From assembly GCA_905220665.1 (NCBI GenBank), contig CAJNAR010000006.1, positions 248,001-312,000 of the forward strand: a DNA stretch of 64,000 nt, written 5' to 3'. Under the pieces are notes generated by a model. It did no database searches. It worked only from the letters and a program-made list of their open reading frames with translations, and was not told the DNA's origin. Made by a program: the position numbers and the translations under genes. Position 1 is the stretch's first letter; every line of letters begins with the position of its first letter. Below, piece by piece: positions 17,059 to 62,925 of the stretch. Source of the DNA: Albugo candida (taxonomy: Eukaryota > Oomycota > Peronosporomycetes > Albuginales > Albuginaceae).

Positions 17059-18478
17059 ATGCGACATGTATGTGTTGCAATCGAAGAACAATGGCACTTG
17101 CTTTCCCGCAATCAACCTTTGAAATATCAGCCACTCCCTCTTCATTTGTTGATGGCAAGGACCTTAACATTCAACGGAACAGAAACTTTTCGTGAAGTTT
17201 TTTTAACATTTTTTCAGGCACTTGGACCGACAACAGCACGATGACGATTGTTTACTTGAAAGCATATGTTTCCTGGTCTTCATGCCACAGCACTGTCGAG
17301 ATTTATCGCCTGATTATGTTGAGATGCGATTATGTAGTACGGTTTCATCATTTCTCTCAATTTCGATTTGGGTACCACGTGATTGATAAAATAGTTGTGA
17401 GGTTGAAGGAAGCGTTTGACGCACCAAAACAAGGTCAACTATCCTTTGCAGCAACATGGTGGTCATGTTTGTTCTGGATATGAAGGCCACCAAGCCGATG
17501 GTGTGATGTGGACTATCGCGTTACAAAGCGAAGATATGTGGCTCCGTTCGGCCATTATTGTGTCTCAGTGGCGACCTCGTAATTCATGCTTCATAGTTGA
17601 AGTAATAATATCCGATTTGAATGCGAACACGCGTTATATTTGGATATGATGGAATTGGCTGGTGCAATACGTTCTCGCTACAGAGAGATAGAAGGTGTCC
17701 AGTTCGTTGCGTACGGCGATATGTGATTTATGGATCAGCTGATGGAGACGACAGCAAGCGTGTAGGGTGATATCCGATGAGTATTCAAACGAATTTTCTC
17801 TCGCATTAAGGAGACATCATTTATGCCACTGGTCGTGACTTACAATGGGATCAATTTATGCACATGATTGAACCCGTCGCAAGCTTTGTCCCGTTTGGTG
17901 TTGGCAAACACGAGCATGATTACAATCGACGAGGCATGACGCATTATCCTAGTCGAGCAGTCAAGTGTGATGATGAATTGGACTATCAAAACAGCTTGGG
18001 GCCGTTTTTATAGAAGTACTTCATCGGGTGAATGCTACTTGCCTTTATATCATCGCTTCCATGCTCCTGAAAATGGTCGTACAGACATCTCCTCGGAGCA
18101 CGATTGGCGTCGTAATTCGGAGCAATCAAGTTGATCGAAAAGAATTTGAAACACAACGCAAGCTGGCGAGGCTGGTGGTATCTTTCCAAATACGTATGGA
18201 ATTAAAAGATTTGCTTCGCAAGTACAATGTGACTGTGCTCATTACTGGTCACAAGCACTCGCACGAGCGAAGCTGCCGTACAGACACAGAGCATGTATCA
18301 TTAGTGAAGGGCCATGTAGTCGCTGATACTCCTGGGGGAAAGTAAAGCAGACACTTCATCCTTACTCGGGAAATGAGGCTGTGTATACATGGGACACATT
18401 CAATTTTGGTTTAGCGCACCAAGATGCAATTCGTGCTGGGGATTCATCTGATCAAGTGGAGATTACTCCATGGAATTG
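17059..18478 (+). pseudogene. Purple acid phosphatase pseudogene
   Basis: This is a decayed copy of the intact phosphatase at 61225-62925. Fragments in all three frames match it in order: MRHVCVAIEEQWHLLS at the start (intact copy MRCVFIAIAAQWQLLS), the stretch IMLRCDYVVRFHHFS near 17310, VSQWRPRN near 17560, AYGDM near 17710, KHEHDYNRRG near 17910 (intact GNHEHDYNRGG), SSEHDWRRNSEQ near 18095, VLITGHKHSHERSC near 18235, and the end EITPWN with TGA at 18476-18478. Several frameshifts and in-frame stops separate these pieces. In the metal-binding GNH motif the Asn has become Lys. It sits upstream of the intact pepsin-like gene at 19366, in the same order as the pair on the other strand at 59-63 kb. 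Confidence 0.88.
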
Positions 18479-19365
18479 AACCTTTTTTTAGGTATAGGCA
18501 GACGAGAAAAGCAGAGGACAATTTGTTTGCCTAACGCTATTGTTTGCATAGAGAGTAGCGGTCAGAGGCAATTGGAGTGGAGCAGGTAAGTTGATGTGAT
18601 GATTTCATCAGCCACTTCAAATACGACTTGTTGTGCCGAAGAAGTATGCTGAGATTGTTGCCGTGTCACATGGTTTAGCCTAAGTGAGCCACTTTCGAAC
18701 TTCCAGTCTATCTAAATCTTTGTTCTCATCGACTGCATATGTCAAGCATTACAGATCAAATCTGCATGATTCATACATGACGGTCCTGTCTGTGCGGGAC
18801 TTGATAATCTTTCAAGACCCTGTTCAAGCCAGAACTAGTTCCCAGGAGTTAACAATGGCTCCAAGCGGTGTTAAACCGTTCGATATGGGCGATAAATGAC
18901 ACGTTCTTATTCTTTCAAATCATAAAGCCCATCCAAGCAAAGGACAAAATAGCAACGCTTACTAGTTCTTTTCCCACTTCGAAATTTTGTAATGTAGACG
19001 GTTTACAACACCGTGGAGCGAATTTGCAAAAATTGCTCTTGAGTGAGCACTGATAGAGATACAAGAATCCGTTTTTAGCTTCATCTTAGCAAATTGCTAG
19101 CAAAAAAACAAAGAAGAACGCTTAGAGCAATCGTGCGAATTTCCTTCTGTGCTGGTACACGTAATAATGCTAGGAATAGGATTAGTTATGAACTGACGGG
19201 TGGAAGTCGTACACTTGGCATTATTATAGAGAAGAAAGGTGCTTATTGCACGCATCAATAAATAAGTACACCTCCCGGAAGATAGAAAGAAATCTCCTTC
19301 TAATCCAGTGGCTGTGGTTAGCTGGCGCGCTACCAGAAAATGACACTTTTGAAGTATCCTGCTAA
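18479..19365. other. Spacer between PAP pseudogene and pepsin-like gene
   Basis: About 890 bp with only short, unconvincing open frames. The equivalent spacer at the inverted copy (60292-61224) is of similar length. No feature is supported beyond the likely promoter of the pepsin-like gene at its right end. Confidence 0.4.
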
Positions 19366-20379
19366 ATGACAAGTCTTTTATTGAAATTCTCTCTTCTTCT
19401 AGTATTTCAACCACTTGAGCCTTCGTATGCTCGATCATATTATAAACTTGGCGTGGTACCGCGTTCAGTGCGTGGTCCACGCGAACAAATAGTTATCGCT
19501 GCAAGGAAGTCAGAAAAAGCTCGTGACAAATGGACACCCATTGTTGTACTTGACAATAATATGGAAGAAAGCAAGCATGATGAGCACGTGAATAATAGGT
19601 GCAACACAGCTGCAGCTGACATCGATTTGTCTCTATGTCTTGGATTGAGCAGCACAGATTCACAACCACCAGTTTCAGTTCATCACCGACGAAAAGTCGC
19701 CGAGAGTTTTTCTTACGTTCAATTTCATCAGCTCTCGTTCCCGTCCTTTGTAAACATACTTAGTTTCGAATGGTCACAATCTGATCATCCAAGATTGTAT
19801 TTTCCGCCCGATCCCCTTATCCATGAAATGCCGAACACGGACGAAGAACAAATTTATCTGCATGATCTTGGCAACGAGATGTTTAAAACAAAAAATACGT
19901 TTGGTGCTTCAGTGAGTCGTGTCACACTGATAGAAAACTGGGCTCGTCCTGAGCTTGCTTCTAATACGATTTACGATTACACTGGTATCTCATTCAATTA
20001 TGGCTCAGTGATAAGCACGATAGATGAGAACGTTTACGAAAATATCAAAACGGAAGTGTTAGAAAGGTTGCAAGTCCAGGATATTAATCATTTCGAATGT
20101 AGTACGGCCGAACAAGCTGAGTTGCCTATATTCAAATTCAAATTGGGTCACGATGGAGTAGAATACGAATTTACAAGTAAGCAATATATCGTGCGGAGAG
20201 AAGATGGGCCAACGCCCATAGCAATTTGCTTCCTGGCGTTGAAACCTCACAAGAGAACCCAGAGGGATATGAGATGGCTTATTGGTGCAACATTTGCCAA
20301 AAGATACGCTACCAAAATCTGGCTTAAAGAGAAGAAATTCGGATTCGTGCCATACAATCAGGTCAGACAAGGTACTTAA
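19366..20379 (+). CDS. Secreted protein with a pepsin-like (A1) second lobe, catalytic Asp replaced by Asn
   Basis: A single-exon gene of 337 residues. The start MTSLLLKFSLLLVFQ followed by a small-residue stretch looks like a signal peptide, so the product is probably secreted. The middle is not recognised. The C-terminal third resembles the second lobe of pepsin-family proteases: a motif FNYGSVIST at about residue 210, where active enzymes have D-T-G-S/T, then a conserved region ending WLIGATFAKRYATKIW and FGFVPY, which is the usual G-x-x-F-x-x-x-Y pattern before the last strand. The first-lobe D-T-G motif is not visible and the second-lobe Asp is Asn, so protease activity is unlikely. Two relatives lie in this window (15904-16500 and 59385-60291). 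Family assignment is by pattern only and could be wrong. Confidence 0.62.
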   Translation: MTSLLLKFSLLLVFQPLEPSYARSYYKLGVVPRSVRGPREQIVIAARKSEKARDKWTPIVVLDNNMEESKHDEHVNNRCNTAAADIDLSLCLGLSSTDSQPPVSVHHRRKVAESFSYVQFHQLSFPSFVNILSFEWSQSDHPRLYFPPDPLIHEMPNTDEEQIYLHDLGNEMFKTKNTFGASVSRVTLIENWARPELASNTIYDYTGISFNYGSVISTIDENVYENIKTEVLERLQVQDINHFECSTAEQAELPIFKFKLGHDGVEYEFTSKQYIVRREDGPTPIAICFLALKPHKRTQRDMRWLIGATFAKRYATKIWLKEKKFGFVPYNQVRQGT

Positions 20380-21959
20380 ATGTAAGTAGGTCGAGGCACG
20401 CAACTAAAATGCAATACATTCAATCGATATTTGGATTTTGTCAGCACGATCTATTTCGTAGCATGCACTAAACTTCTTTGGGGTATGTGATCAATGCTTG
20501 CCTTCAAATCCGAAGGTCTTCGATACTAGTGACATATCCATCAGAATGAGCATAGCCATGCTAGGAGCATACTGAGCACATAATAAGAAAGATTTTCCAC
20601 CCATCGGTACGCTATATCACAGATATCGCTCTCTCACACGCATGCGTACGATATTTTAGTTGCAATCAACCAGTCATGCTTATCTAAAAGGATATGACAA
20701 AGTGGAAGAACGGAACTAAAGCTGGGTTTGAAAGACTTGACTACGATCATATTCATCCACATTTCGCTTGAGCTGTTATTTCTGTTGTTGACTAAATTCA
20801 TTGCAATTCGCGCTTGATAGGTGTGATATATTCGATAATGGAATACGTACATAGGGAATCGATGTAAAGTACTCAATTCCAGCAGCTTGTAAGTCTTTGT
20901 TGCTACTGTTGTACACAGAAGTGGTTACACTTCTGTGTCTGTGGATGCGTTGGTAGTTTAAAAATTCCACGTCTAGTACCTTTCCTTCCGATTCTGCGAT
21001 AATGGCACGCATTAGTAGTAGTGTATTCAAGCTTTGACTCTTCTTTTCATGTCCCATCTCAATGCGTTCTCCGTTGGATGTGTACAAGCTACTTGCTCAG
21101 ATAGGAACGATCAAGGCTGGATGGCGAATACACAGATCTACTCTAAAGGCTCACAGCCATTTTCAGTCATATCTTATCTTCCTGGTAGACTTGCAGAGCT
21201 CATTGGTACCAGGCTATCAGTCAAGGTCGAGAAATGCCATAGGATAACTTTGACATGATCGCCTGACATTTGGAAGAAATTTGAATGTCACGATATCCGT
21301 CGACTTGCGCTGGCTCAGGCATTCATTCATTGTTCCCTCTACCGGAGATGTCTGCAAGTTGTGTGCACAAAGTATATCGAGCCGAGTATGTGATCGCAAT
21401 ACCGCTACCGCTACCAAGCGCCAAAAATAACAACAGGGTGATGTGGGATGATTTGAGAGACATCTCAGTATTGTTCATGGTAGCAATTCGTGCCTAAACA
21501 GAAGAGAGGAGACTGATTCGAGAATCATCTCATAAGCGTATGCTGATAGAGAAAAATGATCGGTGCTGGATGACAAAACCAACGCTGCAAATCAATCAAA
21601 TTCTATGTGTGTATTTTCCTGATTATTGCCTATAGCTACGCTCAAAAACGTTCAACTGGATAGAAAGGAAAGAGTGGCAGTAAATATTACGATGGTATGA
21701 AGAAAACATAGCAAACTCTGCAAAATCTAGTCAGCAGTCTATTCAGGTTATGCATAACGAAGGACCAAAAATTGCAAGAAAGAAAAAGCATGCTACACGC
21801 ATACCGCAAGAGCGGAAGTTTGGAGTGCGATGAGTCGGTTTCGAGAGTGAAGATTACGTATTGACCAGGCATGTTACCAACGAAGAAAACCACAGTTTTG
21901 TATTGCAGTAGCCTCAGCCACCTTAATACGAGACTGTGTCCAGCTTGTAAATGCTGTTA
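20380..21959. other. Gene-poor stretch before the LINE
   Basis: About 1.6 kb with only short open frames, no family resemblance and no clear repeats. The right part may include the 3' untranslated end of the minus-strand LINE, whose exact end I could not place. Confidence 0.35.
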
Positions 21960-31006: not shown

Positions 31007-31178
31007 TGTAACGCCGGCAGGAAGAAGGGAGAGGAAGCAAAGGAAGATATTTGCTGGCGGAGCTCTATTTGATAAAAATGGAAAGTGAGATCTAATCCTG
31101 GTTCACTTATCTGATTGGCTAATCCAGTTCTGCAACTCAATATGAACTATGCATGCATGTACAATGGAGGTTGTTACA
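31007..31178 (-). repeat. 5' LTR of the gypsy element (172 bp)
   Basis: Same TGTAAC/GTTACA ends as the LTR at 27220. It carries 28 extra bases and several substitutions relative to it. I could not recognise a standard tRNA primer site just inside it: the adjoining minus-strand bases are ACCGGTAGCACTTGA, which lack the usual TGG start. Confidence 0.9.
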
Positions 31179-31183
31179 CTTGC
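31179..31183. repeat. Target-site duplication CTTGC, right copy
   Basis: CTTGC directly after the 5' LTR, identical to 27215-27219. Together they show that the gypsy element integrated at one site and that both junctions are intact. Confidence 0.85.
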
Positions 31184-32537
31184 CAGTTGGAGGACAGGAG
31201 GAGAAGGCTGCAATAAGGTCGATGCCCCTGGTGGTGTGATAGGGGGGGGGGAGTATTGAGCTCCAACGAGATTTGATCGGAGATCTTCCGTTCAGGTTTC
31301 CTCGTCTCCAATTCTTGACTGGGAACTGGCTTCATTACCGTTTGTGCGGCTGTATGGTTTTGTTGCTTTTTTTGTTTCTGTTTGTTGTGAATCTGAGTTG
31401 CAGATTGAGTTTGGCTTTGTTTTTGATTATTATTTTTTGCTTGGGTGTTGCGGTGCTCCCGTGGCTGATCTAGCACCCAAATCCAAGCAATAAGGACCAA
31501 GTTGACCGAAACGTGGTCGTTCCGATGGAATGGGATCATTTTCCCCCTTACTGGGTAAAGTTGTTTGTCGTAAGCGATTTGTTCAATCACTTTACCAACT
31601 CTAACCAGCTGTTGGGGGCACGTCAAACACCCAAAATAGACTCTCTAAGTCGATATAACCACTTCTTTAGTGGGAACCGTCTTGCGAAAGGTGTCATACA
31701 CCACGTGACATCCGAGTTGGTGAAGAGAGCGGAGTATGTTGTTCCGCTCCTCCTTCACGCCTACGCCGAAAACATCGAGGTAGTATTTTGTTTCAAGAGT
31801 ATCAAACTCCAGAAAAAATACTTTTCCCCAAGGATAGTCACCGGCAGACACTCCAGCTGTTGGCAGGCATCCGCCGTGGTGACCATCACCCTGATGTTTC
31901 CCCCAGGCATTTCGGATACCTGAGCAATTGACCGGCTCTCCAGTAAACTTTCAAAGACCGGATTGCCGTGGTCTCGCATCAGGGAGGATAATATTTTCCC
32001 ATTTGGAGTACGGGTCAAGGACTGGCCCGTCTCCAACACCATTGGGAAGGTTGCTTTCCGGATTTGGAAAGGTCTTGCTGCTTCCAAATTCGCAGACAAA
32101 ACAGACCAATCCGGGTGCTCCCCATCAGCATATAGCTGCAATATAGCCTCGATATCCGAGGCTTTCGGCTTTGGGAGTTTGACGCGAAAGTTCGCCCGAG
32201 CTCTAGCTGGTCCTTACGCAAGGACTCCTGTGACTTGATAAGGTCAGCAAGAGTGAAACTTTTGGTGTCGTCCACTTGCAATTGCCTCTTGGTCACCCTG
32301 GGACGAGGCAACGACAGTACCGTATGTACCACCGGTACCACATCCGAAACCAGTAGTACTGGTATTGCCCTGTACCGTCACACTGGGGGGGAGTACCTTC
32401 CACGTCATCACACAGGAGTGATCACTCATCAAAACAATCATGCAATCACCCAAAACAGGGTGAATCATGACGGTTGCCACGTCACTACAAGTGGACGCTA
32501 GCACCCTGGGTTGTGTCGATACGTCGACTTGAACCAT
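31179..32537 (-). mobile_element. LINE ORF1 region, 5' part, cut by the gypsy insertion
   Basis: The 5' portion of the LINE that continues at 27219. The minus-strand reading starts at an ATG at 32537 and passes through several frames: 32537-32244, 32341-32015, 32141-31761, 31851-31645 and 31626-31179. The last piece is rich in Gln, Lys and Asn. No domain is recognised. The reading order, strand and continuity across the CTTGC site tie it to the endonuclease and RT further left. A G-run at 31242-31250 and several frame breaks show decay. Confidence 0.6.
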
Positions 32538-40127: not shown

Positions 40128-41064
40128 TCAGCGTCGCGATCTTCTACCCTCAGAATAGCCACCACGTCCACGAGGACCTCTATCGTCATATCGTCGATCA
40201 TGACGATCTCCCATGCGGTTATCATAACGTTTAGTGTAGCGATCTCGGCTTCGGCTTCGACTTCGGCGGCGATCGAATGTTCGTTCTCTACTTCGTCCAG
40301 GACGATCACGCCCGTACCTGATACTCGCGAGTTTTGGTCCAAGATCTATGAATCACAAGTTTCATGGTGAAGAATACAAGATCAGATCGGGAGTTTTCAT
40401 CGTACATTGCCCCGGAGTTTTCGGATGACCACATTTCCGTTTGGCATGCTCCACACGCATTCGACGTCCTTGTATGTCTTTTCTAAACGCACGAGCTTTG
40501 AGACAAGCCTTCTACACAATTGTAGCATACAAACCCGTTCAGCTCTTGTACTGCATCAGCGGCGTCTCGAACATCTTCAAAAGTTACGAATGCGAATCCT
40601 CTGCGAAGACATTCCATCAGTTCGTCTTGCTCATGCAAACTTGCAGCCTTCCAGTACTCACCTTGAATCACGAGATATCGGGTCGATAATAATCTCGCAT
40701 TTTTCCAGGCGACCAAACTTCTCAAATAACTGGCGTAATTCTTCATCAGTGACCTAATTTTGTCGTCTGAGTACATTGCGACTCAACAAAGTGTAAGAAA
40801 GAGTATATGTACCCGATGTGCCAAATTCGCTACATAGAGATTGTTTCCCGGATTCGATATATCTCCATGGTCGCTAGCCATTTGGTTTGAAGAGGGAGAA
40901 GTCGATCTTCTTGCGCCTCCATTCACGCTTGACTTGTTTTCATCTTGATGGCTTTTTTCATGTCCATCTTGACTCGCATCGTTGGGCGAACGCGTGTACT
41001 TTGGACTCGCCTGTCGTTCTTCTTCTTTGATAGATGAGTGCGGAGAGCTTTCACGATCAGACAT
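40128..41064 (-). CDS. TRA2: Transformer-2-like SR splicing factor
   Basis: An RNA-binding splicing regulator of the nucleus. Five exons, 41064-40813, 40753-40662, 40600-40535, 40482-40406 and 40345-40128, give 234 residues with consistent phases. An N-terminal Ser-rich region is followed by one RRM with RNP2 LYVANL (76-81) and RNP1 RGFAFVTF (115-122). After the RRM comes RRMRVEHAKRK, then TPGQYLGP, equivalent to the TPGIYMG linker of Tra2 proteins. The C-terminal tail is RS/RD rich (RRRSRSRSRDRY) with a short Gly-Arg patch. Introns are 48-61 nt. The start is shared as a divergent promoter with the poly(A) polymerase gene. TRA2-type naming is supported by the linker and tail; paralogy within the SR group cannot be settled here. 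Confidence 0.85.
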
Positions 41065-41143
41065 ATTACTTGTGAGCCACTCCGAAAACGAATGGATCGA
41101 CAAATTTCAACCAATCAAATATTTTAGTAGGACTTTACAGCCA
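41065..41143. promoter_or_regulatory. 79-bp divergent promoter between TRA2-like and TENT4-like genes
   Basis: The start codons of two conserved genes on opposite strands are 79 bp apart. Both 5' UTRs and any shared promoter elements must fit here or overlap the coding starts. I see no obvious TATA box. Confidence 0.6.
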
Positions 41144-42622
41144 ATGATGGCACGGACCAAGGATGAAGCACGCCGATCCAATGCGTCCAAACTCGTATCG
41201 ATTCTAACCGGAAAAGAAAGGAAAGAGAAGAAAGAAAAGAAAAGTAAGAAAACAAAACGAACGAAGAAGGGAAAGAAAATACAAAGAAATTTGATTGAAC
41301 CGATTCAGAAAGAAAAAGTTTTAGAAACGAAAAATCGCAAAGAGGATGGATTTATTGCGTTTCAGTATACGAGCAATCCGCTTGCACAAAAATCAAAGTC
41401 TAAGGGAACAGATGAGACTGAACATTCGACGTTAGAGTGCATTGAGACTGACCATATGGCACCGTGGATGAACGAAAGCGAAGGCTACAACCACATGAAT
41501 TTATACTTATGTTTACATGAAGAGATCCTCGACTTTGTGCACTTTATTAGCCCACACGAAGAGGAATTACAAGCAAGAGAGAATCTTATTGCACAAATGA
41601 AAGACCTCGTGTCGAAATTGTGGCCAAATGCTGCAGTCGAGACTTTTGGCTCTCATGAGACTCAAATGTTCTTACCTCATAGTGACATTGATCTTGTGAT
41701 ATTTGGTGCACCTACTGGAAAAGAATCTCTCTTTGTATTAGCCCAAGAAGTAGAAGCTCGGGATATGGTTAGTTACTTGGAAGTTATTGATAAAGCCCGA
41801 ATTCCTATCGTGAAGTTTGTCGATAAAAACAGTGGAATTCAAGTGGACATCTCTTTCAACATCAGCAGCGGACTTGCGACTGCCGATCTCATCAAACAGT
41901 ATATGCGCATCTTCCCGTCTTTTCGTCCATTGGCCCTTGTACTAAAGTATTTCCTCGCACAACGTGAATTGAATGAAACATTTCAGGGCGGCATTGGATC
42001 TTTTTTGTTGCAATTGATGGTTGTAAGTTTTCTGCAGCAATATCGACGTCAATTGGGCACTTTGTATGACGACTTCCGATACAACAATTTGGGCAAATTA
42101 CTGGTGGAATTCTTCGTGCTATATGGACGTGATTTCAATTACGAACAAGTCGGGATTTCGGTACAAAAAGGCGGCTTTTATTTCAACAAAGAAAACCGGG
42201 ATTGGCTCGATCACAATCGCCCATTTTTGTTATCGGTAGAGAATCCGAATGAACCCTCAATGGATGTTGGTAAGAACTCGTACGAGATTCGGACTGTACA
42301 ACGATCGTTCGAATACGCAAGACAAATTCTTTCAAATGAGATTCATCGAAGAGGGCAGCTAGACCGAGGACCCGTCAAAATGTTACATCTGATTATTTCA
42401 AGCTCGAAATTGATGAATCGGACCAGACCACCACGTATGGGTTACGAGATACTGTATCATAATACAGAAAAAACGGTTGCCCTCCAGAAAAAATATGAAG
42501 CACGCTGTAGATCGATGGAGGACAACTCGGTCGATGCTCTTAGAAAAAGGGGGCGAGATCGTGCCTCCGCTCAAGTTTTACCGCATCTGCGTTGGCGAGG
42601 GCAGACTGCGAATTGTCTTTGA
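41144..42622 (+). CDS. Non-canonical poly(A) polymerase (TRF4/TENT4 type)
   Basis: A nucleotidyltransferase that adds A tails to RNAs for exosome decay or stabilises them by mixed tailing. Single exon, 492 residues. After a lysine-rich N-terminus (about 20-60) comes the polymerase-beta-type core, with GSHETQMFLPHSDIDL giving G-S and the catalytic pair D181/D183, and the third carboxylate D235 in VQVDISF-like context (IQVDISFN). The PAP-associated domain follows, with RPLALVLKYFLAQR, GGIGSFLLQLMVV and NLGKLLVEFF. The chosen start is the first ATG of MMARTK; the frame is open further upstream but that overlaps the TRA2-like gene. The C-terminus is basic and short. It matches TRF4/PAPD5/7 proteins. 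Confidence 0.9.
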   Translation: MMARTKDEARRSNASKLVSILTGKERKEKKEKKSKKTKRTKKGKKIQRNLIEPIQKEKVLETKNRKEDGFIAFQYTSNPLAQKSKSKGTDETEHSTLECIETDHMAPWMNESEGYNHMNLYLCLHEEILDFVHFISPHEEELQARENLIAQMKDLVSKLWPNAAVETFGSHETQMFLPHSDIDLVIFGAPTGKESLFVLAQEVEARDMVSYLEVIDKARIPIVKFVDKNSGIQVDISFNISSGLATADLIKQYMRIFPSFRPLALVLKYFLAQRELNETFQGGIGSFLLQLMVVSFLQQYRRQLGTLYDDFRYNNLGKLLVEFFVLYGRDFNYEQVGISVQKGGFYFNKENRDWLDHNRPFLLSVENPNEPSMDVGKNSYEIRTVQRSFEYARQILSNEIHRRGQLDRGPVKMLHLIISSSKLMNRTRPPRMGYEILYHNTEKTVALQKKYEARCRSMEDNSVDALRKRGRDRASAQVLPHLRWRGQTANCL

Positions 42623-49764: not shown

Positions 49765-51194
49765 TCATTCAACCTTCTTTTTGCGCGTCTTTTGCGCGAG
49801 GCTGAATTCACATCGAAACATGATCATACAAATCACAAAGAAGATGAAGAATCCAGAAATGAGCAATCCCGGTTCGAAGAGCATAAACTTTGAAGGAAAA
49901 TCAAATGTCACAGTGAATATCGCATTGTGTTTTCGTGTCAGATTCTTCTTCTTTAGAATCAACACTGGCCGTCCGATAAGAGATGTGTCCAGGTACGTGA
50001 GACGACGTGTTTCACTTTGATCATCGATTTGAAAAGGGACATTCACCTTCACATTCTGTGCACCTTCCGGCAGGATGATTTTCAGTGTTTGAGAGTCCAC
50101 AGCAATGCCTGCGATCGGCGATGAGAATTCCACCTCCAACTTGTACGATTCTCCAGAGCGCTTCAGGACAGACGAAGTGGGAAGCGCATAACCAAGGTAG
50201 AACTGTGTCTTCCATCCACCCATTATAGGAAATCGAAGACTTAGTTCAACTTCTTTGCTCTTGCTGGTGGCTCGAACATGTGAGGTCGTAATATTACCAA
50301 TTTGATCGCGATAGTAAATGCCCATCGCTTGTTTTGGAAGTCTTGCGTGTAATGTATTAAACGAAGCTCCAGTCGTTCCAAGAGAGTATGCTAGACGAGA
50401 AAACGGTCCCTTCAATGCTGCGCCAGTATGCGATATATCGTACACTTCTTCGACACTCACTCTTCCCCACATTGACACTTCGACTTCTTTGATGAGTTCA
50501 GTTACCGTAATAAAAGGCGAATGATTGCGGTAGTGCACGCGAACATCGTTTGCATTTCCCGCATATGGCTCGACATTCTCATAGGGTCCGTATGTGATGA
50601 AGGAGCCTTTATGCTGACACGGCTCCAATTTGGAAAAGCTCTCGACTCTTGCAGACGGCATTTTCAAAATTGTTGTCTGTGTTTCAGTGACATAAGGACT
50701 CAGAACAAATTGTGAATCGTAAAAAAGCACTTTCTGATCATCACCCTGCTTGATCTGAACGGGATACGGAGTCAATGAGCGTGTTAGCTGCATTGTGACC
50801 TTGATCGTGCTCTCTTCGCCTTTGGCAATGGGAGTCTTCAATTTCAGAATATAAGTAGCCACCGCTTGCCCCTCTTTGGAAACGATTTTATCCGATGGAA
50901 CGATATCACCAAATTTGGGTGCTGCTATATAGGCAACGTGCTCATTGATACTCTTATGGACCGCAATTACGTATTCCGTGATATCATTCTCAGAGTCAGT
51001 GACAGTAATGTCGGTATTGACGCGAACGACATGCTGAGTGAGATCGATGACGCGTTTGATCTGCACAAAGGACATGAATTCAAGTCTCATTGTCAGCGGG
51101 AAGGAAGACGTACCGATTTGTTGATGATTGCAGCATCTGTGGCGTGATGCAATCCAAGCGTAAGGAGTAATGTTCGGAGCAATTGTAGCCTCAT
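49765..51194 (-). CDS. OST1: Ribophorin I, oligosaccharyltransferase subunit OST1
   Basis: A non-catalytic subunit of the ER oligosaccharyltransferase that transfers glycans to Asn. Two exons, 51194-51114 and 51060-49765, give 458 residues. Exon 1 is a signal peptide (MRLQLLRTLLLTLGLHHATDA). Exon 2 opens with RVIDLTQHVVRV and continues with family landmarks DSQFVLSPYVTETQ, VSMWGRVSVEE, FSRLAYSLG and GWKTQFYLGYALP. One transmembrane helix (LLISGFFIFFVICMIMF) lies near the C-terminus, followed by a basic tail ending KKKVE. The cytosolic tail is short, as in yeast. The start faces the mitochondrial L7/L12 gene 112 bp away. Confidence 0.93.
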
Positions 51195-51306
51195 GTCAAA
51201 ATTGGTGGATTGAGCGCTGTCCGCAGATTCCGTATAAGATATGTATACCTTATGTGTTTAGAACAGATTGGTAGATATTCGAGACAGCGTATAACCAATC
51301 AATTCA
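51195..51306. promoter_or_regulatory. 112-bp divergent promoter between OST1 and mitochondrial L7/L12
   Basis: The start codons of two divergently transcribed conserved genes are separated by 112 bp, which must contain both 5' UTRs and promoters. Confidence 0.55.
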
Positions 51307-54589: not shown

Positions 54590-54680
54590 TTGCTTTAGTT
54601 GCGTGTGGTTGACGGGGGGCTCTTAATTCGCAAGGGAAGGATATCAAGTACCGGTAATACCAAGTTTATAAAAGTGGTGG

Positions 54681-56066
54681 TTAAATGTTACAAACTGCAA
54701 GAGCTTTCTGATAATATTCAATGGCTTGATCGGGATGACCTTGACACATCATAATTTGACCTAACAACACTAGATTGGATGGAGTGTCCTGATACTGAAT
54801 GCTTTTGCGACACGCTATTTCCGCAGCAACATAATCGACAACCTTCATGCGACATTGTGCCAACAAATTCCATGCTTTTGCATTTGATTGCTCGATCGCC
54901 GTTGCTCGTAATAATTCAAGAATGGACGCCTGATATTCTTCTTCGGCAAATAATTTCTCCGATGAGGCAACTAATTGGGAAGCCTTTTGACGAGCCTTTC
55001 CAATCCGACGAATACGGACAGTAGCGCATTTTGCTTCATTTGCTGCAACATCTTCCTTCCTCTGGAGAAACTGCCACTTATGATAGAAATACTGTATCTC
55101 CATTTGATTCTGCAATATCATTTGTTCCTTTCGCGCGATCGTATCGACCAAATCTTCCATTTCCTTTTTATTATTTCCCACAGCTATACAACTTGCGTTA
55201 TCTTCCGATTTGGCTGGGGAATCGGGCAGGGATTTCACCGCAATGGAGCGTTTGGATGCTAATAAGCGACGTGCAATAGCATCTGCATCATCCGAATTGT
55301 TACCGTCCCCAGCACGAGAAGGCTGATGCTTTGATTTTCGTTTCCGAGCGACTTTATCGACAGATTTTGCATCCGCTAAACGCTGTTTCGAGCGCTTCTT
55401 TTTATGCTGATCGACATGGCATTCTTCAGACTTGACGCCACTGCGGTCACGGGACACTTTTACTGACGAACCATCAGTTGGTCTCGAGCGCTGTTTTGGC
55501 CGCGACGAATGCTGACTATGTTTCGTTTCTCGCTTCCGATGTCTCTTTTCCGGTTGAGTACCTTTTGCTTTCTCAGGCGCTCGGACAAGCGGTACTCCAT
55601 GCTTTCTGACATTATCGTCTCCAATTGTTTGACTTGGTGTCGACGCAGGTCGTGTACCCGGTGGAACGCTTGCTGCACTTTGAGTTCGATGCGGCACAGA
55701 CGAATGACTCGTTTCTCGTGCATTTATTTTCTGCATTTGCCTCCCTTGATCTGCACGTTTGGCCATGTGTGTGCGCCAGAGTGACGTATCTCCGACAGAA
55801 GACATATTTCCGATTTGTACGAGTTGGAAACACGCATCACAAACGCGCTGTTTGTCTGATGATAGAGAAGAAGGAATTCGAACTCTTCTTCGAGAATGAG
55901 ACCCACATACCGAAATTCCACAATTTCGACAGTGATGTCGGAGTCGAAATGGAGAGAAATGACCATTGCAAACGGCACATTTATTAGCAAGCTGCCAGGG
56001 TTGTTGTGGAATGTAAGTTTTATCGGACTTCCTGTAGCGAATGCGATGTGTGGAAGCACTCGGCAT
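54681..56066 (-). CDS. FYVE zinc-finger protein with C-terminal TPR-like helices
   Basis: FYVE domains bind PI3P on endosomes and autophagic membranes. Single exon, 461 residues, starting MPSASTHRIRYRKSD. The FYVE finger is at about 24-81: WQLANKCAVCNGHFSPF, RLRHHCRNCG (the basic R-x-H-H-C-R motif) and VCDACF. Zinc ligands are C30, C33, C46, C49, C54, C76 and C79. At the sixth position H57 replaces the common Cys. A long basic, low-complexity linker (about 110-300, many KRH and SKH runs) follows. The C-terminus has helices and a TPR-like unit (AIEYYQKALAV). FYVE proteins with varied partners are expanded in oomycetes. The partner and role are unknown. Confidence 0.85.
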   Translation of the reverse strand: MPSASTHRIRYRKSDKTYIPQQPWQLANKCAVCNGHFSPFRLRHHCRNCGISVCGSHSRRRVRIPSSLSSDKQRVCDACFQLVQIGNMSSVGDTSLWRTHMAKRADQGRQMQKINARETSHSSVPHRTQSAASVPPGTRPASTPSQTIGDDNVRKHGVPLVRAPEKAKGTQPEKRHRKRETKHSQHSSRPKQRSRPTDGSSVKVSRDRSGVKSEECHVDQHKKKRSKQRLADAKSVDKVARKRKSKHQPSRAGDGNNSDDADAIARRLLASKRSIAVKSLPDSPAKSEDNASCIAVGNNKKEMEDLVDTIARKEQMILQNQMEIQYFYHKWQFLQRKEDVAANEAKCATVRIRRIGKARQKASQLVASSEKLFAEEEYQASILELLRATAIEQSNAKAWNLLAQCRMKVVDYVAAEIACRKSIQYQDTPSNLVLLGQIMMCQGHPDQAIEYYQKALAVCNI

Positions 56067-56271: not shown

Positions 56272-59064
56272 TCAAGTGGTCGGAAGCGTTATCTGCTCAT
56301 GGAGTGCAGCACGCAATTTCCAGTATACATTCAGAGTTTGCGTCTCGACAAAAGCGATTCGATCAAACAACGCTGCAAGCTCATTGATTGTGAGAGAAAA
56401 ATTGTCGGGATGTCTGAATTGAATTTCGAATGTTTCCTCCAGTTCCTAAAACAAGTGTAAGCGCAAAGAGTACAATCGACTTTGGGTCCTTGAACCTGCA
56501 GGTGAGTCCCCAACGCAAGCATATCGTCTCCGAGAGAATTGAAGCTGCCGCTGAGATGCATGCCAAGCTCCGATGCTTCCGTTTCGGAGAGCTCGATATG
56601 CTCATTATTGTCCAAAAGAAAGGCTCGAGTCTACAATGCAACCAGACTAATTCAATTGAAAGAGTGCTGCGGGTTCACGTACGCCCGGGAGATCTGCGGC
56701 ATTATCGCTGTCCACGTATATACTGTTGATGCGTCTCATTGCCGCCAAGTTGCCTGTAAAGCTTTTCAAAATGAGTAATTTTGTAAAACTGAGCTCGTGC
56801 TGGAATTGCTGTCGGAAGCTTTCCAAGCAAACGGGAAGGATCAGTTCAGTCGGTTTGTAGCTCTTTTCTCTGATCTGGCGAGGCTCTATATGCACTCCGC
56901 AGTATTTCCAAATTCGATCGACCTCCGTGAACCAATCTCTCTCATATGAAGCCTCTTTTCGTTGTGTTCCATTAGTTGCACTCACTACTTTACTTGCCGC
57001 TACCAGATGAAGACATTCATTCTGAAGCAGTGTGCATCTCACAGGCATCAATTTCATGTCTTCCATACACGGACCAAGTCTTGGAGTAAATACTAACGAG
57101 GAATCGACCATCACGATCCCATAATCATAAGGCATTTGATCCAGACTGATCTCGATGATCTGTTCGGCATCGTTAGGCCGCCATGGGAATGAATAGCACG
57201 GGATTGCGTTAAGGTGCGAGCAAACGCAAACCTCGATATGCCTATTGCAGAAAAGTGACCAAGAGACAGATACGCGAATACAAACATTTGAGCTTACCAA
57301 AAGCTTGTGTCTTCAAGATTCTGAGTGACAGCAATAACTGCGGAGCACGTCTGAATCCGAATACGGACAACGTACGCATTCTCATCGCGAAAAGATCCTG
57401 TTTTGATGCGTCCGATTTCCGACTTGCATTCCATTGCATGTCCTACGCATAAGAGTTGACAAGAGCACTACTAGTTGAGCGTCGCCCACCATCCACGGAA
57501 AGGGACTGTTGCATATATAAAGCTATCTTGAGATTTCTGAGAACACCATCAATAGTTAGAGAGTTTTCTCGTGAGCCTGCTATTTTCTCTGCGACAAAAT
57601 CAATGTGGTCTATATGCGGTTTGACCCGTGATAGCATATCGGTTTCCTGATCACGGACATCGGGCTTAGTTGCGCTGTGACGTGAGCCTTGAATAGATGC
57701 GAAAAATTCGCTAAATTTCAGTTTTTGAATACGATTGTATCCTCCTCGAAAAGTAGAGTAAAGAGAGAACTCGTTCGTCGTCATCCACCGATATGGAAAA
57801 TTGCTTTGTGCCCTAGACCGTATTATCTCATAAGGTTTGTATGAGTATAAAGGCCTTCACCTACCGATGAACCGGGCAAACGACGAAATGATTTCATTGT
57901 CGAAGTTCCATTTCCGTTTTCGAGATGCTGAAGAAGATCATCGAGACATGCAACTTGTACGTGGTCTCTTACTAGGCAAATGATGCAATTGAAAGAGGTC
58001 ATATACGCCACCCTTGGAAAGAGACCTTGAAACAAAGCACATTCGAAACAACCAGAATTTCTATCCCGTATAAGATAAAAGTTGCCAGATCGACCGATAG
58101 CTAGTAGAGCTACAAAATGCATACTTCTGGGTCGTAAGGTGACTAGCGATACGATTTCTTCCGGAAAAGTCCAGAAAACGCCAGACTGGAAAATTTTGCT
58201 ATCGAGGTCTTGCTTGATGGTGACATAACGAAGACACCCTTCGTGATCTCCTTGAATACCACAAATGCACTTTCCTTAGCCGAAAGAGTGAACGACTTTC
58301 TGAACTCAAGCGGGATGAGGTCTCGAATCAGTGTCGCTTCTATCGTTTGACTGCGAAATGCTATCACGCAGGTTGCTCCAATTCCCTCCAAATCATCAAA
58401 TATCAACGTGTGGTGTGTTTTATGAGCGCTCAGCAGTGGTAGCTGTATCGTGATCATCATGCTCGGCTCGACGTAGCCTGTACATACAACTTGCAACATA
58501 TATTTCTCGGAAGGAACGAGCAATAATTGCATGAGCCCAGCGTAAGTGAACAGATATTGTGACGAATAGCTTGAATCCGTAGGAGAAGTGTTCTCAACTG
58601 AAATCCTACCGCGTTTCATTAACCGCGACTGAGAGTCAGGTAGCAACGAGTTTTGTGAATCCAAATCAGGAAGATACGATTGGAGTGATAATGGCTGTAA
58701 GCCTCTGAAGTACATTGGGAGACTCACCATCCACACTTGCCCATTGCTGTCTGCTACAATTAACTTGTACGTATCCAATGACGTTGATTGAAGCTCCTTT
58801 ACATCCACAATAAGGCATTTAGATCGGATGACACACTGAGATTTCGTGATGAAAAACTAATACAAGTTGCAATACATTACTATTGCGTACCATTACCACA
58901 TTATTGACAATGAAATGCATCAGATGTGGTGCCCTTTGTACTACCAACGCATTCACAGGGAGAGAAGCGGACTGGAATTTCGCGGACAGTAGTAGGAACA
59001 ATGGGTTGCATGCTCTTGCAGTACTTAACATCAAAGTACTACGTACGCATTTGGAAGATACCAT
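56272..59064 (-). CDS. Unidentified multi-exon protein, beta-rich, ~800 residues
   Basis: A conserved-looking gene I cannot name. Supported exons on the minus strand are 59064-58891, 58835-58260, 58185-57865 (end uncertain), a block ending at 57490, 57442-57298, 57241-56683, 56630-56496 and 56445-56272. All checked phases agree except between about 57870 and 57780, where the frame changes and I could not place the splice. The first half is beta-strand rich, with propeller-like repeats (YKLIVADSNGQVWMVSLP, SMHFVALLAIGRSGNFYLI). The centre is also beta-rich, and the last 150 residues look helical (FSLTINELAALFDR, LNVYWKLRAALHEQ). Propeller plus beta-sandwich plus helices recalls BBS subunits or FANCB/FAAP100, but no diagnostic motif was recognised. 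The start may lie in an upstream exon. Confidence 0.55.
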
Positions 59065-59384
59065 TTCTGGTTGCAGCGAGTTGAAGCAACAGAAATATAT
59101 GGACACGTGCGTTGACCAGTCTCTGCGAGATCTACTGATCGCAACCTTCTCTACATTTAAAAGTACTAAGCTTACCGAGTCTTTGTTATTGGTACTTACC
59201 TCTTAGACTGAAAATGAGTTGCGTCATTCGTTTCTTACGTTCGAATATATATAGATGATAAGCGCAATGACTTCAGCAAAAAGAAGAGATGATGTGAATG
59301 AGGTGCAAAGGTTGGAGTAATTGTATTGACAATTAGAGACCCTAGGGTGACTTACAGCACAGGTAGCAAAGTGGATTTGTATGC
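59065..59384. other. Intergenic gap
   Basis: About 320 bp between the start of the unidentified protein and the stop of the pepsin-like copy. Short open frames only; possibly an extra 5' exon of the gene to the left. Confidence 0.3.
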
Positions 59385-60291
59385 TCATTCTTTTTTCGGT
59401 AAGAACCCAAACATCATTGTTCCGCCTGGAGGACGCCATATTTTGGTGGGATACCCTCTGGCAAATGCTGCGCCAATTCTCCAAACTCTATTCGCGCCAT
59501 TACAAGGCTGAATAGCTAAGTAGCAGAAATCTGTGGCGTCACCAAGATTATATTTTCGTACAATGTACTCGTCTTTGGTGAATTCGTACTTTATTTCATC
59601 CTCTGGCAATGTGAATTCGATAAATGGCAGCTCGCGATTATCAGTACAATCGCATCGGAAATTGATTGGATCGAAATTCTGGCAAGAAGTTGAGATGAGT
59701 GCTTCTTTGAAAATTTTGTAAGTTGGAGTATCAATAATGGTTATTGGCGATCCATAGTCGAAAGAAAGGGCAATCGGAGTTGGCCGGGGGCGGGTTTGTC
59801 CGGGTAGGATCAGAGTGATTTCAGCAAGCAAAGTACCGAAATCTTCGATGGCAGGTTCGACAAACACTTGCTTGACTAATGGATGACCAACGATACTTCT
59901 TCCATTATTGTTCAAAATCACGCCATGTAGTAATTGGTGTTCCACGTACAATCTTGGATTACTAGATTTTGGCCAAAAGAAAAGAAGTTGTGAAGGCAAT
60001 TTGGCAGGAAAAAAACACTCGATTATCGAAATTATGAAGCGGCACATATTTCCCTGGTTTTATTTGCTCGAATCTCCACTTAGTATCCGCCACGCTTGGG
60101 GCATCTTTTCTCTTCTGTAGCGCAGTAGAGCTAGATCCCTCTCTATAGTCTTCGTCGGGCGATACAAGCGGTAGATTTAAATCTATGAGATGACCCAAGT
60201 TATCATTGTCCGTGGGTTGCTCCGACCCATAAGCAAATTCTACTTTATTTTTCAATTTGTTCAGCATCACCTCAGCTACTATTCCAGACAT
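59385..60291 (-). pseudogene. Pepsin-like secreted-protein copy with a frameshift
   Basis: Relative of the intact gene at 19366-20379. From about 60291 the minus-strand frame runs to near 60015 and then continues in a second frame from 60047 to the stop at 59385. The switch occurs at a run of seven A (plus strand 60009-60015). Conserved landmarks are LIDLNLPL, NPRLYVEHQLLHG, FDYGSPITIIDTPTY, EFTLPED, WRIGAAFARGYPTKIW and FGFLP. The Asp of D-Y-G-S is kept. No ATG precedes the hydrophobic segment LLKLLLLQGIKV (about 60390-60350), so the signal-peptide start is lost or lies on another exon. The only ATG in frame is at 60291. Either this is a recent pseudogene or the homopolymer length is a sequencing error. 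Confidence 0.6.
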
Positions 60292-61224
60292 CTTCACTTT
60301 CAACTTGATATAATGTTGGGGATGCGTTGGCTTGCATACTTTGATACCTTGCAGAAGAAGGAGTTTCAATAGATGATTTTTCACCGAGGGCGAATTTTTA
60401 AAAGTGTTATACTCTAGCCCTGCATCAAGAACTCCGGACAATCCACTATTTATGCGATATGTGCATAAGTGCACCTTTCCGATTCCAAAAACTGCCTACT
60501 GTACGACTCTCACAAGTCCACCAATTAAATGCTGGATCGCTCGCTATGTCACCGTTCTTCAATCGATTCATTTCTTCTTGGTCTAAATGTGCTTAACACA
60601 AGCTTCCAACGTAATTTTGTATCTCAATTTCACTTCACTTGCAAAAAGGTTTGCCCATTGAGCGATAAACATTGCACGATGTGACATGCCTTCTACGGCT
60701 CTAAATTCGAAGATGCGGATAGGTTAGGAAGCGTTGCTACTGCCTCTAATGATCGGATGGGCTCGGACTATTTGCTGTATCTCAGAACGCGAGCGATTTT
60801 TTAGGGAGATTGACATGGCTGAGAGAGATGCTATATCTGTGGGATATGTCTTTGCTTCGATAATTTTCAAAAATTTTAAAAATTTCAGACTTTCGACTGC
60901 ACAATGTGACCGTTGTGTATCGAATAATCGACCGTTAGTGCATGGCATATGCAGCCATTGAGAACAGAGGCTATGCATCAGATGCTGAGTACGACGAGAG
61001 CATTCGGATTCGACGCAGCAATAATCTGAGAATGAGTTCAAAACCGTAAACAAGTCGTGTTTCAGGTGATTGTTTGTGATTGTGAATCGATTCTCACACC
61101 ACTTTGATTGATGCGAACTTTTCTTTTCACTCAAATGACATATACCGCTATTATTCCTATACAAACACATTACTTCAACAGGTAGTCCTCGCTTCTCTCA
61201 TCTACCCATATTTGCAAAGGGTAT
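60292..61224. other. Spacer between PAP and its pepsin-like neighbour
   Basis: About 930 bp, the counterpart of the spacer at 18479-19365. It includes the hydrophobic leader-like stretch of the pepsin-like copy at its left end and otherwise only short open frames. Confidence 0.35.
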
Positions 61225-62925
61225 TTATTTCCATGGAAGGATATCCACTTGGTCAAACACAACCCCGGTTCGACTCAAAACAAATTGCATCTGCATGCGC
61301 TGAGTTGTCACCGTAAACCGAAGGTATCCCCAATCTACGGTATGTGAAACGCTCCATTTGCCGATCGAGGATGAAAAGCCGTATTTTTCTAAATCGGCAC
61401 CGGCGGTACCAACGACTACATGCACTGGCCCTTGCTCCTCCTCATTGAGACACAGTCCCCGTCGCACGCGGCAAGTTCGTTCGTACGAGTGCTGGTGACC
61501 AGTGATGACCAAATTCACTTTGTACTTGAAGAGCAAATCTTCTAGTTCCATACGTAAATGGAAAGACATAACCAGATCCTCAGCTTCACCACCTTGCGTT
61601 GTGTACATCATACGATGTGACGTGAGTACGATCCAGGGTGTTGCACTACGATTCACTTGTTTCAAATCCTTTTCAATCCACTTGTATTGCTCCGAATTAC
61701 GACGCCAATCGTGCTCCGAAGATATCTGTACGATATGGATAGGTCCATAATCGAAAGAGTACCAGAATATTCCACGACCATTTCCAGGCGCATGGAAACG
61801 ATGATACAAAGGCACAGAGCATTCTCCCGATGAATCACTTTTGTAGTTGCCCCAACTGGGTTGAAAATCCATTCCATCATCATACCCAACTGCTCCACTA
61901 GGATCATGCGTCCTGCCTCCTCGGTTGTAATCATGCTCGTGGTTGCCAACGCTAACCAAATACGGAACAGAGGTTGCAATGGGTTCGATCATGTGCATAA
62001 ATTGATCCCACTGAAACCCACAACCAGTTGCATAACTGATGTCTCCTACATGCAAAAGGAAATTATTGAATCCCTGTCGAATATCGTCAAAGACACGCTT
62101 TGCTGTCCATTCCGCCGACTGATACATAAATCCTCCCATATCGCCGTACGCAATGAACTTGACGTTTTCAATCTCTCTTTCCGGTCTTGATATGAACGAG
62201 TCAATTCTGCTCCAGCCAATTGCATCATTGCCAAACTGGTAGTAGTAACGCGTACTTGGATGTAGGTCAGACATTATCACTTTGTGCATAAAACCTGGAT
62301 TTCGAAATCGCCACTGGGACACAATAGTGGCTGGACGGTGGCACATATCCTTTGCTTCGTATGTCGTCCACGTACCGCTAGCATAACGATCCAAAGCTTC
62401 ACGAGATAGTCCATATCGCACCATTGGCTCGGTAGCATTCGAATCCGAATTAAACATGACCACCATCTCGTTCCATAGCGAAGTGAACGACAAGTGGCCC
62501 TGTTTCGGTGTGTTGAACGATTCTTTCATCTTCACAACCACTTTATCAATCACGTGGTACCCAAATTGAAACAGGGAGAAATGATGATATCGTACAACAT
62601 AATCGCATCTCAACATAATCTGACGATAGAACACGACAGTGTTGTGATAGGAATATCGGACAACATAAACCTTGAACAGGAAATCGCCATCGTTTTGTTG
62701 TGGTCCACAAGTGATTGAAATAAAGTCTAGCAAACTCCAAGAAAAGTTTTGGTTCCACTGAACCTTGAGGTCCTCGCCATCACGTAATTGGGACGGAGTC
62801 ACTCGGAGTCCTAGTTTCAGTGCCGTTGTTTGTGACGACGAAACGACTCGAAAATTTGACTCGAACACATCATTGGCTGAGAGTAACTGCCATTGTGCTG
62901 CGATTGCAATAAACACACATCGCAT
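61225..62925 (-). CDS. Secreted purple acid phosphatase-like metallophosphoesterase
   Basis: A dinuclear-metal phosphatase, probably secreted, that releases phosphate from organic esters. Single exon, 566 residues from the ATG at 62925. The start MRCVFIAIAAQWQLLSA is signal-peptide-like. An N-terminal fibronectin-like half is followed by the catalytic domain with the five PAP motifs: GDMGG near residue 260, GDISYATG, VGNHEHDY near 327, VILTSHRMMY, and VITGHQHSYERTC near 475. The metal ligands (Asp, Asp, Tyr, Asn, His, His, His) all appear present. The C-terminus ends FDQVDILPWK. The frame is open further upstream only with a GTG start and is not used. A broken homologue lies at 17059-18478, and a pepsin-like copy follows downstream. 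It may serve in phosphate scavenging from the host; this is inference. Confidence 0.92.
   Translation of the reverse strand: MRCVFIAIAAQWQLLSANDVFESNFRVVSSSQTTALKLGLRVTPSQLRDGEDLKVQWNQNFSWSLLDFISITCGPQQNDGDFLFKVYVVRYSYHNTVVFYRQIMLRCDYVVRYHHFSLFQFGYHVIDKVVVKMKESFNTPKQGHLSFTSLWNEMVVMFNSDSNATEPMVRYGLSREALDRYASGTWTTYEAKDMCHRPATIVSQWRFRNPGFMHKVIMSDLHPSTRYYYQFGNDAIGWSRIDSFISRPEREIENVKFIAYGDMGGFMYQSAEWTAKRVFDDIRQGFNNFLLHVGDISYATGCGFQWDQFMHMIEPIATSVPYLVSVGNHEHDYNRGGRTHDPSGAVGYDDGMDFQPSWGNYKSDSSGECSVPLYHRFHAPGNGRGIFWYSFDYGPIHIVQISSEHDWRRNSEQYKWIEKDLKQVNRSATPWIVLTSHRMMYTTQGGEAEDLVMSFHLRMELEDLLFKYKVNLVITGHQHSYERTCRVRRGLCLNEEEQGPVHVVVGTAGADLEKYGFSSSIGKWSVSHTVDWGYLRFTVTTQRMQMQFVLSRTGVVFDQVDILPWK

What the first reader, a model, noticed from the sequence alone, without database searches (positions are those of the whole stretch)
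17059..62925. Inverted duplication of a PAP + pepsin-like gene pair with reciprocal decay
At 17059-20379 (+) a PAP pseudogene is followed by an intact secreted pepsin-like gene. At 62925-59385 (-) an intact PAP is followed by a frameshifted pepsin-like copy. Order, relative direction and spacer length (about 0.9 kb each) match. The two copies face each other across about 39 kb that holds the retroelements and a dozen housekeeping genes. Each site keeps one working gene of the pair, as in reciprocal loss after duplication. Such inverted copies can recombine and invert the block between them.
Basis: partly seen in the sequence, partly recalled or inferred. Interest (0 to 1): 0.75.

Follow-up and report, generated by a model that had tools for sequence, protein, structure and literature searches.

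The report
Copied gene blocks sharing DNA patches
The two facing gene pairs are real, but they are two of at least six copies of one gene block in a white-rust genome, and one of them has a closer mirror copy just outside the window with which it seems to have exchanged DNA around, but not inside, the gene for a fast-changing, probably secreted protein.

Summary
In detail: a purple acid phosphatase (PAP) pseudogene plus an intact 337-aa pepsin-like ORF (S1) face an intact PAP plus a frame-split pepsin-like copy (S2), in matching order, direction and spacing. The 'inverted twin with reciprocal decay' reading mostly fails. S1 and S2 are two of six main block copies in this Albugo candida genome: S1, S2, S3, S4b on C6, S5 on C161, S6 on C43. 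S2's mirror partner is S3, outside the window. They share a 3,452-bp tract with one difference, covering PAP, inside arms that are otherwise 79-98% identical by segment outside the pepsin-like ORF. S1 is closest to S4b by pepsin-like gene and spacer, not by PAP alone. S1 and S2 share no exact run over 34 bp, S2 and S3 share 2,171 bp, so S2/S3 is the inversion-prone pair. Best model: birth and death of a segmental unit with ectopic gene conversion. The pepsin-like ORF is a divergence island: 59-62% identity to S5 and S3, 5' flank 89-93%, first 356 bp downstream 77-79%, then 91-98%. A known kind of process.

The parts
16048..16392 (+). S1: remnant of a second pepsin-like gene (pepsin-alpha), interrupted
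   Evidence: C6:264048-264392, 1 TGA inside; open relatives of 330 and 325 aa at S4a and S4b
16661..16939 (+). S1: fragment of the TRP-like membrane gene
   Evidence: 77.7% to C6:312499-312783, inside the TRP-like ORF of S2
17056..18445 (+). S1: purple acid phosphatase pseudogene (right limit chosen by me)
   Evidence: 24 indels (16 frame-changing), 8 in-frame stops against the intact S2 frame
19366..20379 (+). S1: uninterrupted 337-aa pepsin-like ORF (pepsin-beta), C-lobe half only, secretion inferred from its hydrophobic N-terminus by eye
   Evidence: dN/dS 0.59 (bootstrap 0.39-0.99) against the open S4b copy
21074..21738 (+). S1: remnant of gene C; right edge of the block as shared with S4b
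   Evidence: 21074-21455 matches S2 58389-58778 (68.3%); similarity to S4b runs to C6:269738
54681..56066 (-). S2: FYVE-TPR gene (461 aa); similarity to S3 and S5 stops inside it
   Evidence: FYVE E 1.2e-14; S3 similarity ends at C6:303003, S5 similarity at 303059
56647..58856 (-). S2: gene C region (several ORFs, no Pfam family over cut-off); C6:304048-307028 is 97.5% to S3
59132..60388 (-). S2: divergence island containing most of the frame-split pepsin-beta copy (open-frame pieces 59388-60059 and 59965-60495)
   Evidence: ORF stretch 61.6% to S3 and 59.4% to S5; 5' flank 89.4% and 92.7%; first 356 bp downstream 78.9% and 76.9%
60939..64000 (.). S2: window part of the 3,452-bp tract shared with S3 (C6:308939-312390), one difference
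61225..62925 (-). S2: intact purple acid phosphatase, 566 aa
   Evidence: 1,701 of 1,701 bp identical to S3
63400..64000 (-). S2: C-terminal end of the 975-aa TRP-like gene, which continues outside the window to C6:314327

Best explanation
S1 and S2 are two members of a family of segmental copies with the order [pepsin-alpha]-TRP-PAP-pepsin-beta-gene C-[FYVE], lying in both orientations on C6, C161 and C43. S2 is most likely the source locus, because only there are the two edge genes (TRP-like 975 aa, FYVE-TPR 461 aa) complete; the other copies carry truncated TRP next to pepsin-alpha. The copies then went through birth and death: among the block copies PAP is open only in S2 and S3, and pepsin-beta is uninterrupted only in S1, S4b and S5. 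Ectopic gene conversion between the inverted neighbours S2 and S3 very recently made a 3.45-kb stretch with PAP near-identical. Older exchanges homogenised gene C between S2 and S3 and other stretches among S2, S5 and S6. The pepsin-beta ORF has been left out of this exchange and keeps an old divergence, either because selection removed converted copies or because the divergence itself blocks conversion. Shown: copies found, identities, segment mosaic, gene states. Inferred: source locus, conversion as the process, timing, reason for the island.
For: Six main copies plus partial S4a in the own genome. S2/S3 tract of 3,452 bp with 1 difference; beyond its edge 17 differing columns in C6:308889-308938, a count that depends on the alignment since an indel lies there. 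Runs of concordant variable sites exceed all 5,000 shuffles for S2=S3 (85, shuffle max 26) and S2=S5 (22, shuffle max 12). Segments conflict: in the FYVE segment S2 is closer to S5 (95.3%) than to S3 (84.4%), in the gene C segment the reverse (91.2% vs 97.5%). Pepsin-alpha next to truncated TRP is seen in S1, S3, S4a, S4b, S5 and S6 but not in S2, although PAP sequence groups S2 with S3, S5 and S6 (support 100). S5 and S6 share 3 of 4 frame-changing PAP indels. Island: ORF 61.6% (S3) and 59.4% (S5) with dS 0.60-0.78 among S2/S3/S5, while the other segments are 84-100% to S3 and 91-96% to S5, except the first 356 bp downstream (78.9% and 76.9%).
Against: No reads, second assembly or population data were available, so conversion is inferred from one sequence. 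The exact shared TRP junction is weakly resolved: similarity upstream of it to S3, S5 and S6 has z 2.2-3.3 for S1 and 1.7-3.1 for S4b (5.1-6.2 for S4a), against 0.3-1.4 to S2; for S4b this is hardly a difference. S1's PAP alone is not closer to S4b than to S2 (74.6% vs 75.1%). S1 and S4b share 2 of 8 stops and 2 frame-changing indels, but S5's single in-frame stop also coincides with one of S1's and S4b shares one frame-changing indel with S5 and S6, so shared lesions are weak evidence there. Both S2 and S3 pepsin-beta copies are frame-split, so present-day selection on those two is doubtful. The gradual recovery of identity over the 356 bp downstream of the ORF is less tidy than the 5' edge.
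Confidence: 0.8

Rival explanations
1. One reading: one inverted duplication produced S1 and S2, then each site lost the other gene (reciprocal loss).
For: Matching order, direction and spacing, and opposite gene states. S1 PAP is no closer to S4b than to S2.
Against: Six main copies; S2's nearest relative is S3, and S1's spacer and pepsin-beta are nearest to S4b. The same opposite states recur at S3, S4b and S5. S1 carries pepsin-alpha beside a TRP fragment as S3-S6 do, S2 does not.
Confidence: 0.05
2. S2 and S3 are simply a very recent inverted duplication, without gene conversion.
For: Near identity over 3.45 kb and 97.5% over the gene C segment.
Against: A single recent event would give even identity along the arms; instead it runs 97.6, 100, 89, 62, 79, 97.5, 84% in successive segments, and S5 is closer to S2 than S3 is in the FYVE segment and in C6:308743-308982 (95.0% vs 87.9%). 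Run-length test 0 of 5,000 shuffles.
Confidence: 0.07
3. Assembly artefact: haplotigs (C43 as an allele of C161) or a mis-joined inverted copy on C6.
For: Diploid organism (recalled), no reads seen; C43 and C161 are 91-96% identical in the main pieces over about 14 kb.
Against: C43/C161 similarity stops at both ends inside fetched sequence (C43:32685 and 46818), and S6 lacks pepsin-beta; structurally different alleles are not excluded by this. A false mirror copy on C6 would not carry a mosaic of 62-100% identity. A second inverted half-pepsin pair exists on C26.
Confidence: 0.08
4. The pepsin-beta island is passive: once the ORFs had diverged, mismatch blocked conversion there, with no selection for difference.
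For: dS between copies is high (0.60-0.78), so the island is old rather than driven by amino-acid change alone; dN/dS about 0.7-0.8. S2 and S3 copies are frame-split. Identity recovers only gradually downstream of the ORF.
Against: The fall in identity begins at the start-codon site, with the preceding bins at 84-96%. At C26 a half-pepsin ORF lies inside the 99% part, so such ORFs can be homogenised.
Confidence: 0.45

Closest known systems
Duplicated genes under gene conversion with a peak of divergence at a selected target (red/green opsins; review PMC3924837, passages read, citing Teshima and Innan 2008)
   Same: Low divergence in flanks kept by conversion, a narrow peak of divergence over a protein-coding stretch
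   Different: Here the peak spans a whole ORF at 59-62% identity, S2 and S3 are in inverted orientation, and two of the three island copies are frame-split
CEACAM32 in ruminants (PMC7042247, abstract and outline seen)
   Same: Conversion in leader and non-coding parts but not in the mature protein
   Different: Exon-intron gene of mammals; here a single-ORF gene of an oomycete, no expression data
Recombination or gene conversion among RXLR paralogs of Phytophthora ramorum (PMC3820680, passages read)
   Same: Oomycete plant pathogen, secreted-protein paralogs whose segments give conflicting trees
   Different: There exchange occurs inside effector genes; here it homogenises neighbouring genes and spares the pepsin-like ORF
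Loss of heterozygosity in Albugo candida races, for which gene conversion was suggested (PMC4384639, passages read)
   Same: Same species; gene conversion named as a possible homogenising process
   Different: There between alleles genome-wide; here between paralogous copies at different places
Purple acid phosphatases of oomycetes
   Same: S2 PAP has the N-terminal, metallophosphatase and C-terminal domains; 57% to a Pythium insidiosum protein
   Different: Nothing unusual beyond the identical inverted copy

Membership tests
Interlocus gene conversion tract | Stretch of far higher identity with sharp edges inside diverged paralogs | tested here: met
   3,452 bp with 1 difference; neighbouring segments 89.4% and 97.6%; pepsin side edge sharp, TRP side milder
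Interlocus gene conversion tract | Segments of one alignment support conflicting relations beyond shuffled sites | tested here: met
   S2=S3 run 85 and S2=S5 run 22, each 0 of 5,000 shuffles; S3=S5 run 5, reached by 16 of 5,000; identity table
Interlocus gene conversion tract | Conversion seen between individuals or generations | not testable with these tools
   one assembly, no reads
Two-copy duplication with reciprocal gene loss | The two copies are each other's closest relatives | tested here: not met
   S2-S3 closer by PAP, S1-S4b closer by pepsin-beta and spacer; S1 PAP alone unresolved (75.1% vs 74.6%)
Two-copy duplication with reciprocal gene loss | Each copy keeps a different gene | tested here: met
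Inverted repeat able to invert the block between | Long near-identical arms (S1/S2) | tested here: not met
   longest exact match 34 bp, 68-80% identity in matched pieces
Inverted repeat able to invert the block between | Long near-identical arms (S2/S3) | tested here: met
   longest exact match 2,171 bp
Purple acid phosphatase (S2) | Three-domain layout in an open frame | tested here: met
   PF16656, PF00149, PF14008, all over cut-off
Purple acid phosphatase (S2) | Five metal-ligand motifs (list recalled) | tested here: inconclusive
   four literal; VxxH only as LTSH under a looser pattern
Pepsin family A1 (S1 337-aa protein) | C-terminal lobe similarity | tested here: met
   renin, E 3.2e-10 with the 8-sequence profile, positions 232-332
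Pepsin family A1 (S1 337-aa protein) | Two lobes, each with a D-T/S-G catalytic motif | tested here: not met
   no N-lobe match; the loop at the second motif reads NYGS in S1, NYGT in S4b and DYGS in S2, S3 and S5 (motif recalled, correspondence by eye)

The most novel reading that the evidence does not exclude
The inverted S2/S3 repeat works as a conversion engine that keeps upstream regions and neighbouring genes uniform while holding a probably secreted half-pepsin ORF apart as a hypervariable cassette. In this white-rust parasite inverted copies would thus be an active means of diversifying a family of probably inactive pepsin-like proteins. The C26 inverted pair would be the same arrangement caught after a recent conversion of the ORF itself.
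Probability: 0.25. Interest if true: 0.62.

Novelty: new member of a known kind. Interest (0 to 1): 0.38.

Why it matters
It replaces a two-site story by a family in which the closer inverted partner lies just outside the window, a caution for reading duplications from a limited window. It also gives an oomycete example of one block where some genes are homogenised and a pepsin-like ORF between them is not, which can be tested directly with other Albugo isolates.

Tried and rejected
Structure of the S1 pepsin-like protein: AlphaFold model from a 5-sequence alignment, mean pLDDT 30.7, pTM 0.22; no fold search was run on it. Pfam at its cut-off recognised only 1 of 7 family proteins or pieces scanned (the 445-aa relative at C6:335590, Asp); the pepsin assignment rests on the profile search and that relative. 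Transposon-carried spread of the block: a dispersed repeat of about 0.7 kb lies in the S2-S3 spacer and a reverse transcriptase fragment lies right of S1, but I saw no element bounding the copies consistently and did not pursue it. dS between S1 and S2 PAP was not computed because S1 is too broken for a codon alignment without reading through; DNA identity was used instead.

Literature: of the papers listed by the searches (15 of 51; 10 of 15; 15 of 604; 10 of 12; 10 of 164; 12 of 474; 12 of 46; 10 of 12), none showed by title or abstract start this locus or conversion between such blocks in Albugo. I read passages of four papers and one abstract with outline; one find returned nothing. Furzer et al. 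2022 was seen only as a citation. This is not proof of absence from print.
Full report
Setting. The window is C6:248001-312000 of a 38.9-Mb, 196-contig assembly. The organism is taken to be Albugo candida or very close to it: the S4b pepsin-like protein is 332 of 337 identical to an NCBI Albugo candida protein. Window coordinate plus 248,000 gives the C6 coordinate.

Observation. S1 (window 16.0-21.7 kb, +) has a PAP pseudogene with 24 indels, 16 of them frame-changing, and 8 in-frame stops, then a 337-aa uninterrupted pepsin-like ORF. S2 (54.7 kb to the window end and beyond, -) has an intact PAP of 566 aa and a pepsin-like copy lying in two frames. DNA similarity of the PAP parts is 70-80% and inverted; a third segment downstream also matches (68.3%). 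The spacers align weakly but above shuffles (z 6.0), and the sequence tested outside the blocks does not align.

The family. Searches of the assembly and pairwise BLASTN show further copies: S3 at C6:318.3-329.3 kb (+), partial S4a at 358.1-360.2 kb and S4b at 360.9-372.2 kb (-), S5 at C161:249.1-261.5 kb, S6 at C43:38.3-46.8 kb. A more distant open PAP sits on C24 (55%). S2 and S3 are mirror copies with roughly 10-kb arms (C6:303003-312839 and 319504-329261) around a spacer of about 6.7 kb; S3 and the spacer are outside the window, and so is the last 0.8 kb of the S2 arm. Only S2 holds a TRP-like ORF of 975 aa (the S3 and S5 copies lie in frames of 489 aa, S6 is interrupted; paralogs elsewhere have open frames of 875 and 890 aa among others) and the 461-aa FYVE-TPR ORF across the points where the S3 and S5 copies stop; this makes S2 the likely source. 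In the alignment of the TRP end, S1, S3, S4a, S4b, S5 and S6 continue into pepsin-alpha sequence and S2 does not. For the precise junction the support is moderate for S4a (z 5.1-6.2), low for S1 (2.2-3.3) and S4b (1.7-3.1), against 0.3-1.4 for S2.

Who is closest to whom. S2 PAP: S3 100.0% (1,701 of 1,701), S5 96.3%, S6 94.9%, S1 75.1%, S4b 74.1%. S1 pepsin-beta, C-terminal pieces: S4b 87%, S2 36%, S3 33%, S5 30%. S1-S4b spacer alignment score 782 against 36 for S1-S2. Against this, the S1 PAP by itself is as far from S4b (74.6%) as from S2. So the inverted relation of S1 and S2 comes most likely from membership in one family, not from one duplication.

Gene states. PAP is open in S2 and S3 and broken in S1, S4b, S5 and S6, with only fragments in S4a. 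Pepsin-beta is open in S1, S4b and S5, frame-split in S2 and S3, absent in S6, where C43 similarity to C6 jumps from 309208 to 307255. Exactly one of the two genes is open in 5 of these 6 copies; with six related copies this is no test of reciprocal loss. S5 and S6 share 3 of 4 frame-changing PAP indels. S1 and S4b share 2 of 8 stops and 2 frame-changing indels, but the single S5 stop also coincides with an S1 stop and S4b shares one indel with S5 and S6, so I give that little weight. Small assembly errors cannot be excluded for the frame changes in the S2 and S3 pepsin-like copies.

Conversion. Along the S2/S3 arms identity runs 97.6% (distal TRP), 100.0% (3,451 of 3,452 over C6:308939-312390), 89.4% (5' flank of pepsin-beta), 61.6% (pepsin-beta ORF), 78.9% (356 bp after it), 97.5% (gene C), 84.4% (FYVE). 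S5 to S2 reads 95.3, 95.9, 92.7, 59.4, 76.9, 91.2 and 95.3% in the same order. Runs of concordant variable sites exceed all 5,000 shuffles for S2=S3 and S2=S5; for S3=S5, 16 of 5,000 reach the observed run over both segments together, and 2 and 202 of 5,000 in the two segments taken apart. A simple recent duplication would not produce this; ectopic conversion would. Gene conversion has been suggested for A. candida before, for loss of heterozygosity between alleles (PMC4384639, passage).

The island. In roughly 100-bp bins, S2 against S3 and S5 reads 84-96% from C6:308798 to 308389, 66-73% in 308388-308289 (the S2 start-codon site is at 308384 by alignment to S5), 47-70% per bin from 308288 to 307451, 73-84% from 307347 to 307029, and 98-99% in the next bin. 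Synonymous divergence is 0.60-0.78 and dN 0.48-0.53 among the three, so the ORFs look older than their flanks. This resembles the divergence-peak signature described for duplicated genes under conversion (PMC3924837, passages) and the CEACAM32 case (PMC7042247, abstract). Whether selection or mere mismatch protects the island is open. The open S1 and S4b copies show dN/dS 0.59 (bootstrap 0.39-0.99) overall, 1.65 in codons 1-130 and 0.34 in the rest, the parts without intervals.

What the pepsin-like protein is. With the family profile, the matched solved structures are pepsin-type proteases, best renin at E 3.2e-10, over the C-terminal part. The loop at the second catalytic motif reads NYGS in S1, NYGT in S4b and DYGS in S2, S3 and S5 (correspondence by eye, canonical motif recalled). 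I infer a secreted, probably inactive half-pepsin family; no signal-peptide predictor was run. The own genome shows 31 matches to the S1 protein at E up to 0.001, self included, a lower bound. A role in infection is not shown.

Verdict. Interest lies in the clean mosaic and in the spared pepsin-like ORF.

Noticed in passing
G000 C26:21401-22400 (+) and 31165-32166 (-), L045-L047: A second inverted pair of half-pepsin genes, 99% identical over 1 kb around the ORF and 86% in the adjoining 1.2 kb; here the ORF itself lies in the near-identical part.
   Followed up: partly
C6:316218-318340 (L010:4218-6340): The S2-S3 spacer holds about 2.1 kb absent from S5 and S6, containing a dispersed repeat of about 0.7 kb; 83 matches with 40 of 151 candidates scored, a lower bound.
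   Followed up: partly
C6:361106-362970: S4b carries a 1.9-kb insertion in its gene-C remnant relative to S1, with the S1 alignment resuming at the same base, C6:269540.
   Followed up: no
C43:44380-44390: S6 has lost the whole pepsin-beta interval, the PAP 3' end meeting the gene-C side within about 10 bp.
   Followed up: no
C6:335590-336927 (L012): A 445-aa relative of the family over the Asp cut-off, 100% identical over 433 residues to an unnamed protein with source tag lgn, lies 6 kb right of S3.
   Followed up: no
window 40973-42619 (+): Nucleotidyltransferase of the Cid1/mitochondrial poly(A) polymerase type between the two sites, unrelated to the purple acid phosphatases.
   Followed up: no
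window 49768-51195 (-) and 2470-14616 (-): Ribophorin I gene and a 4,049-aa VPS13-like ORF, ordinary housekeeping genes.
   Followed up: no
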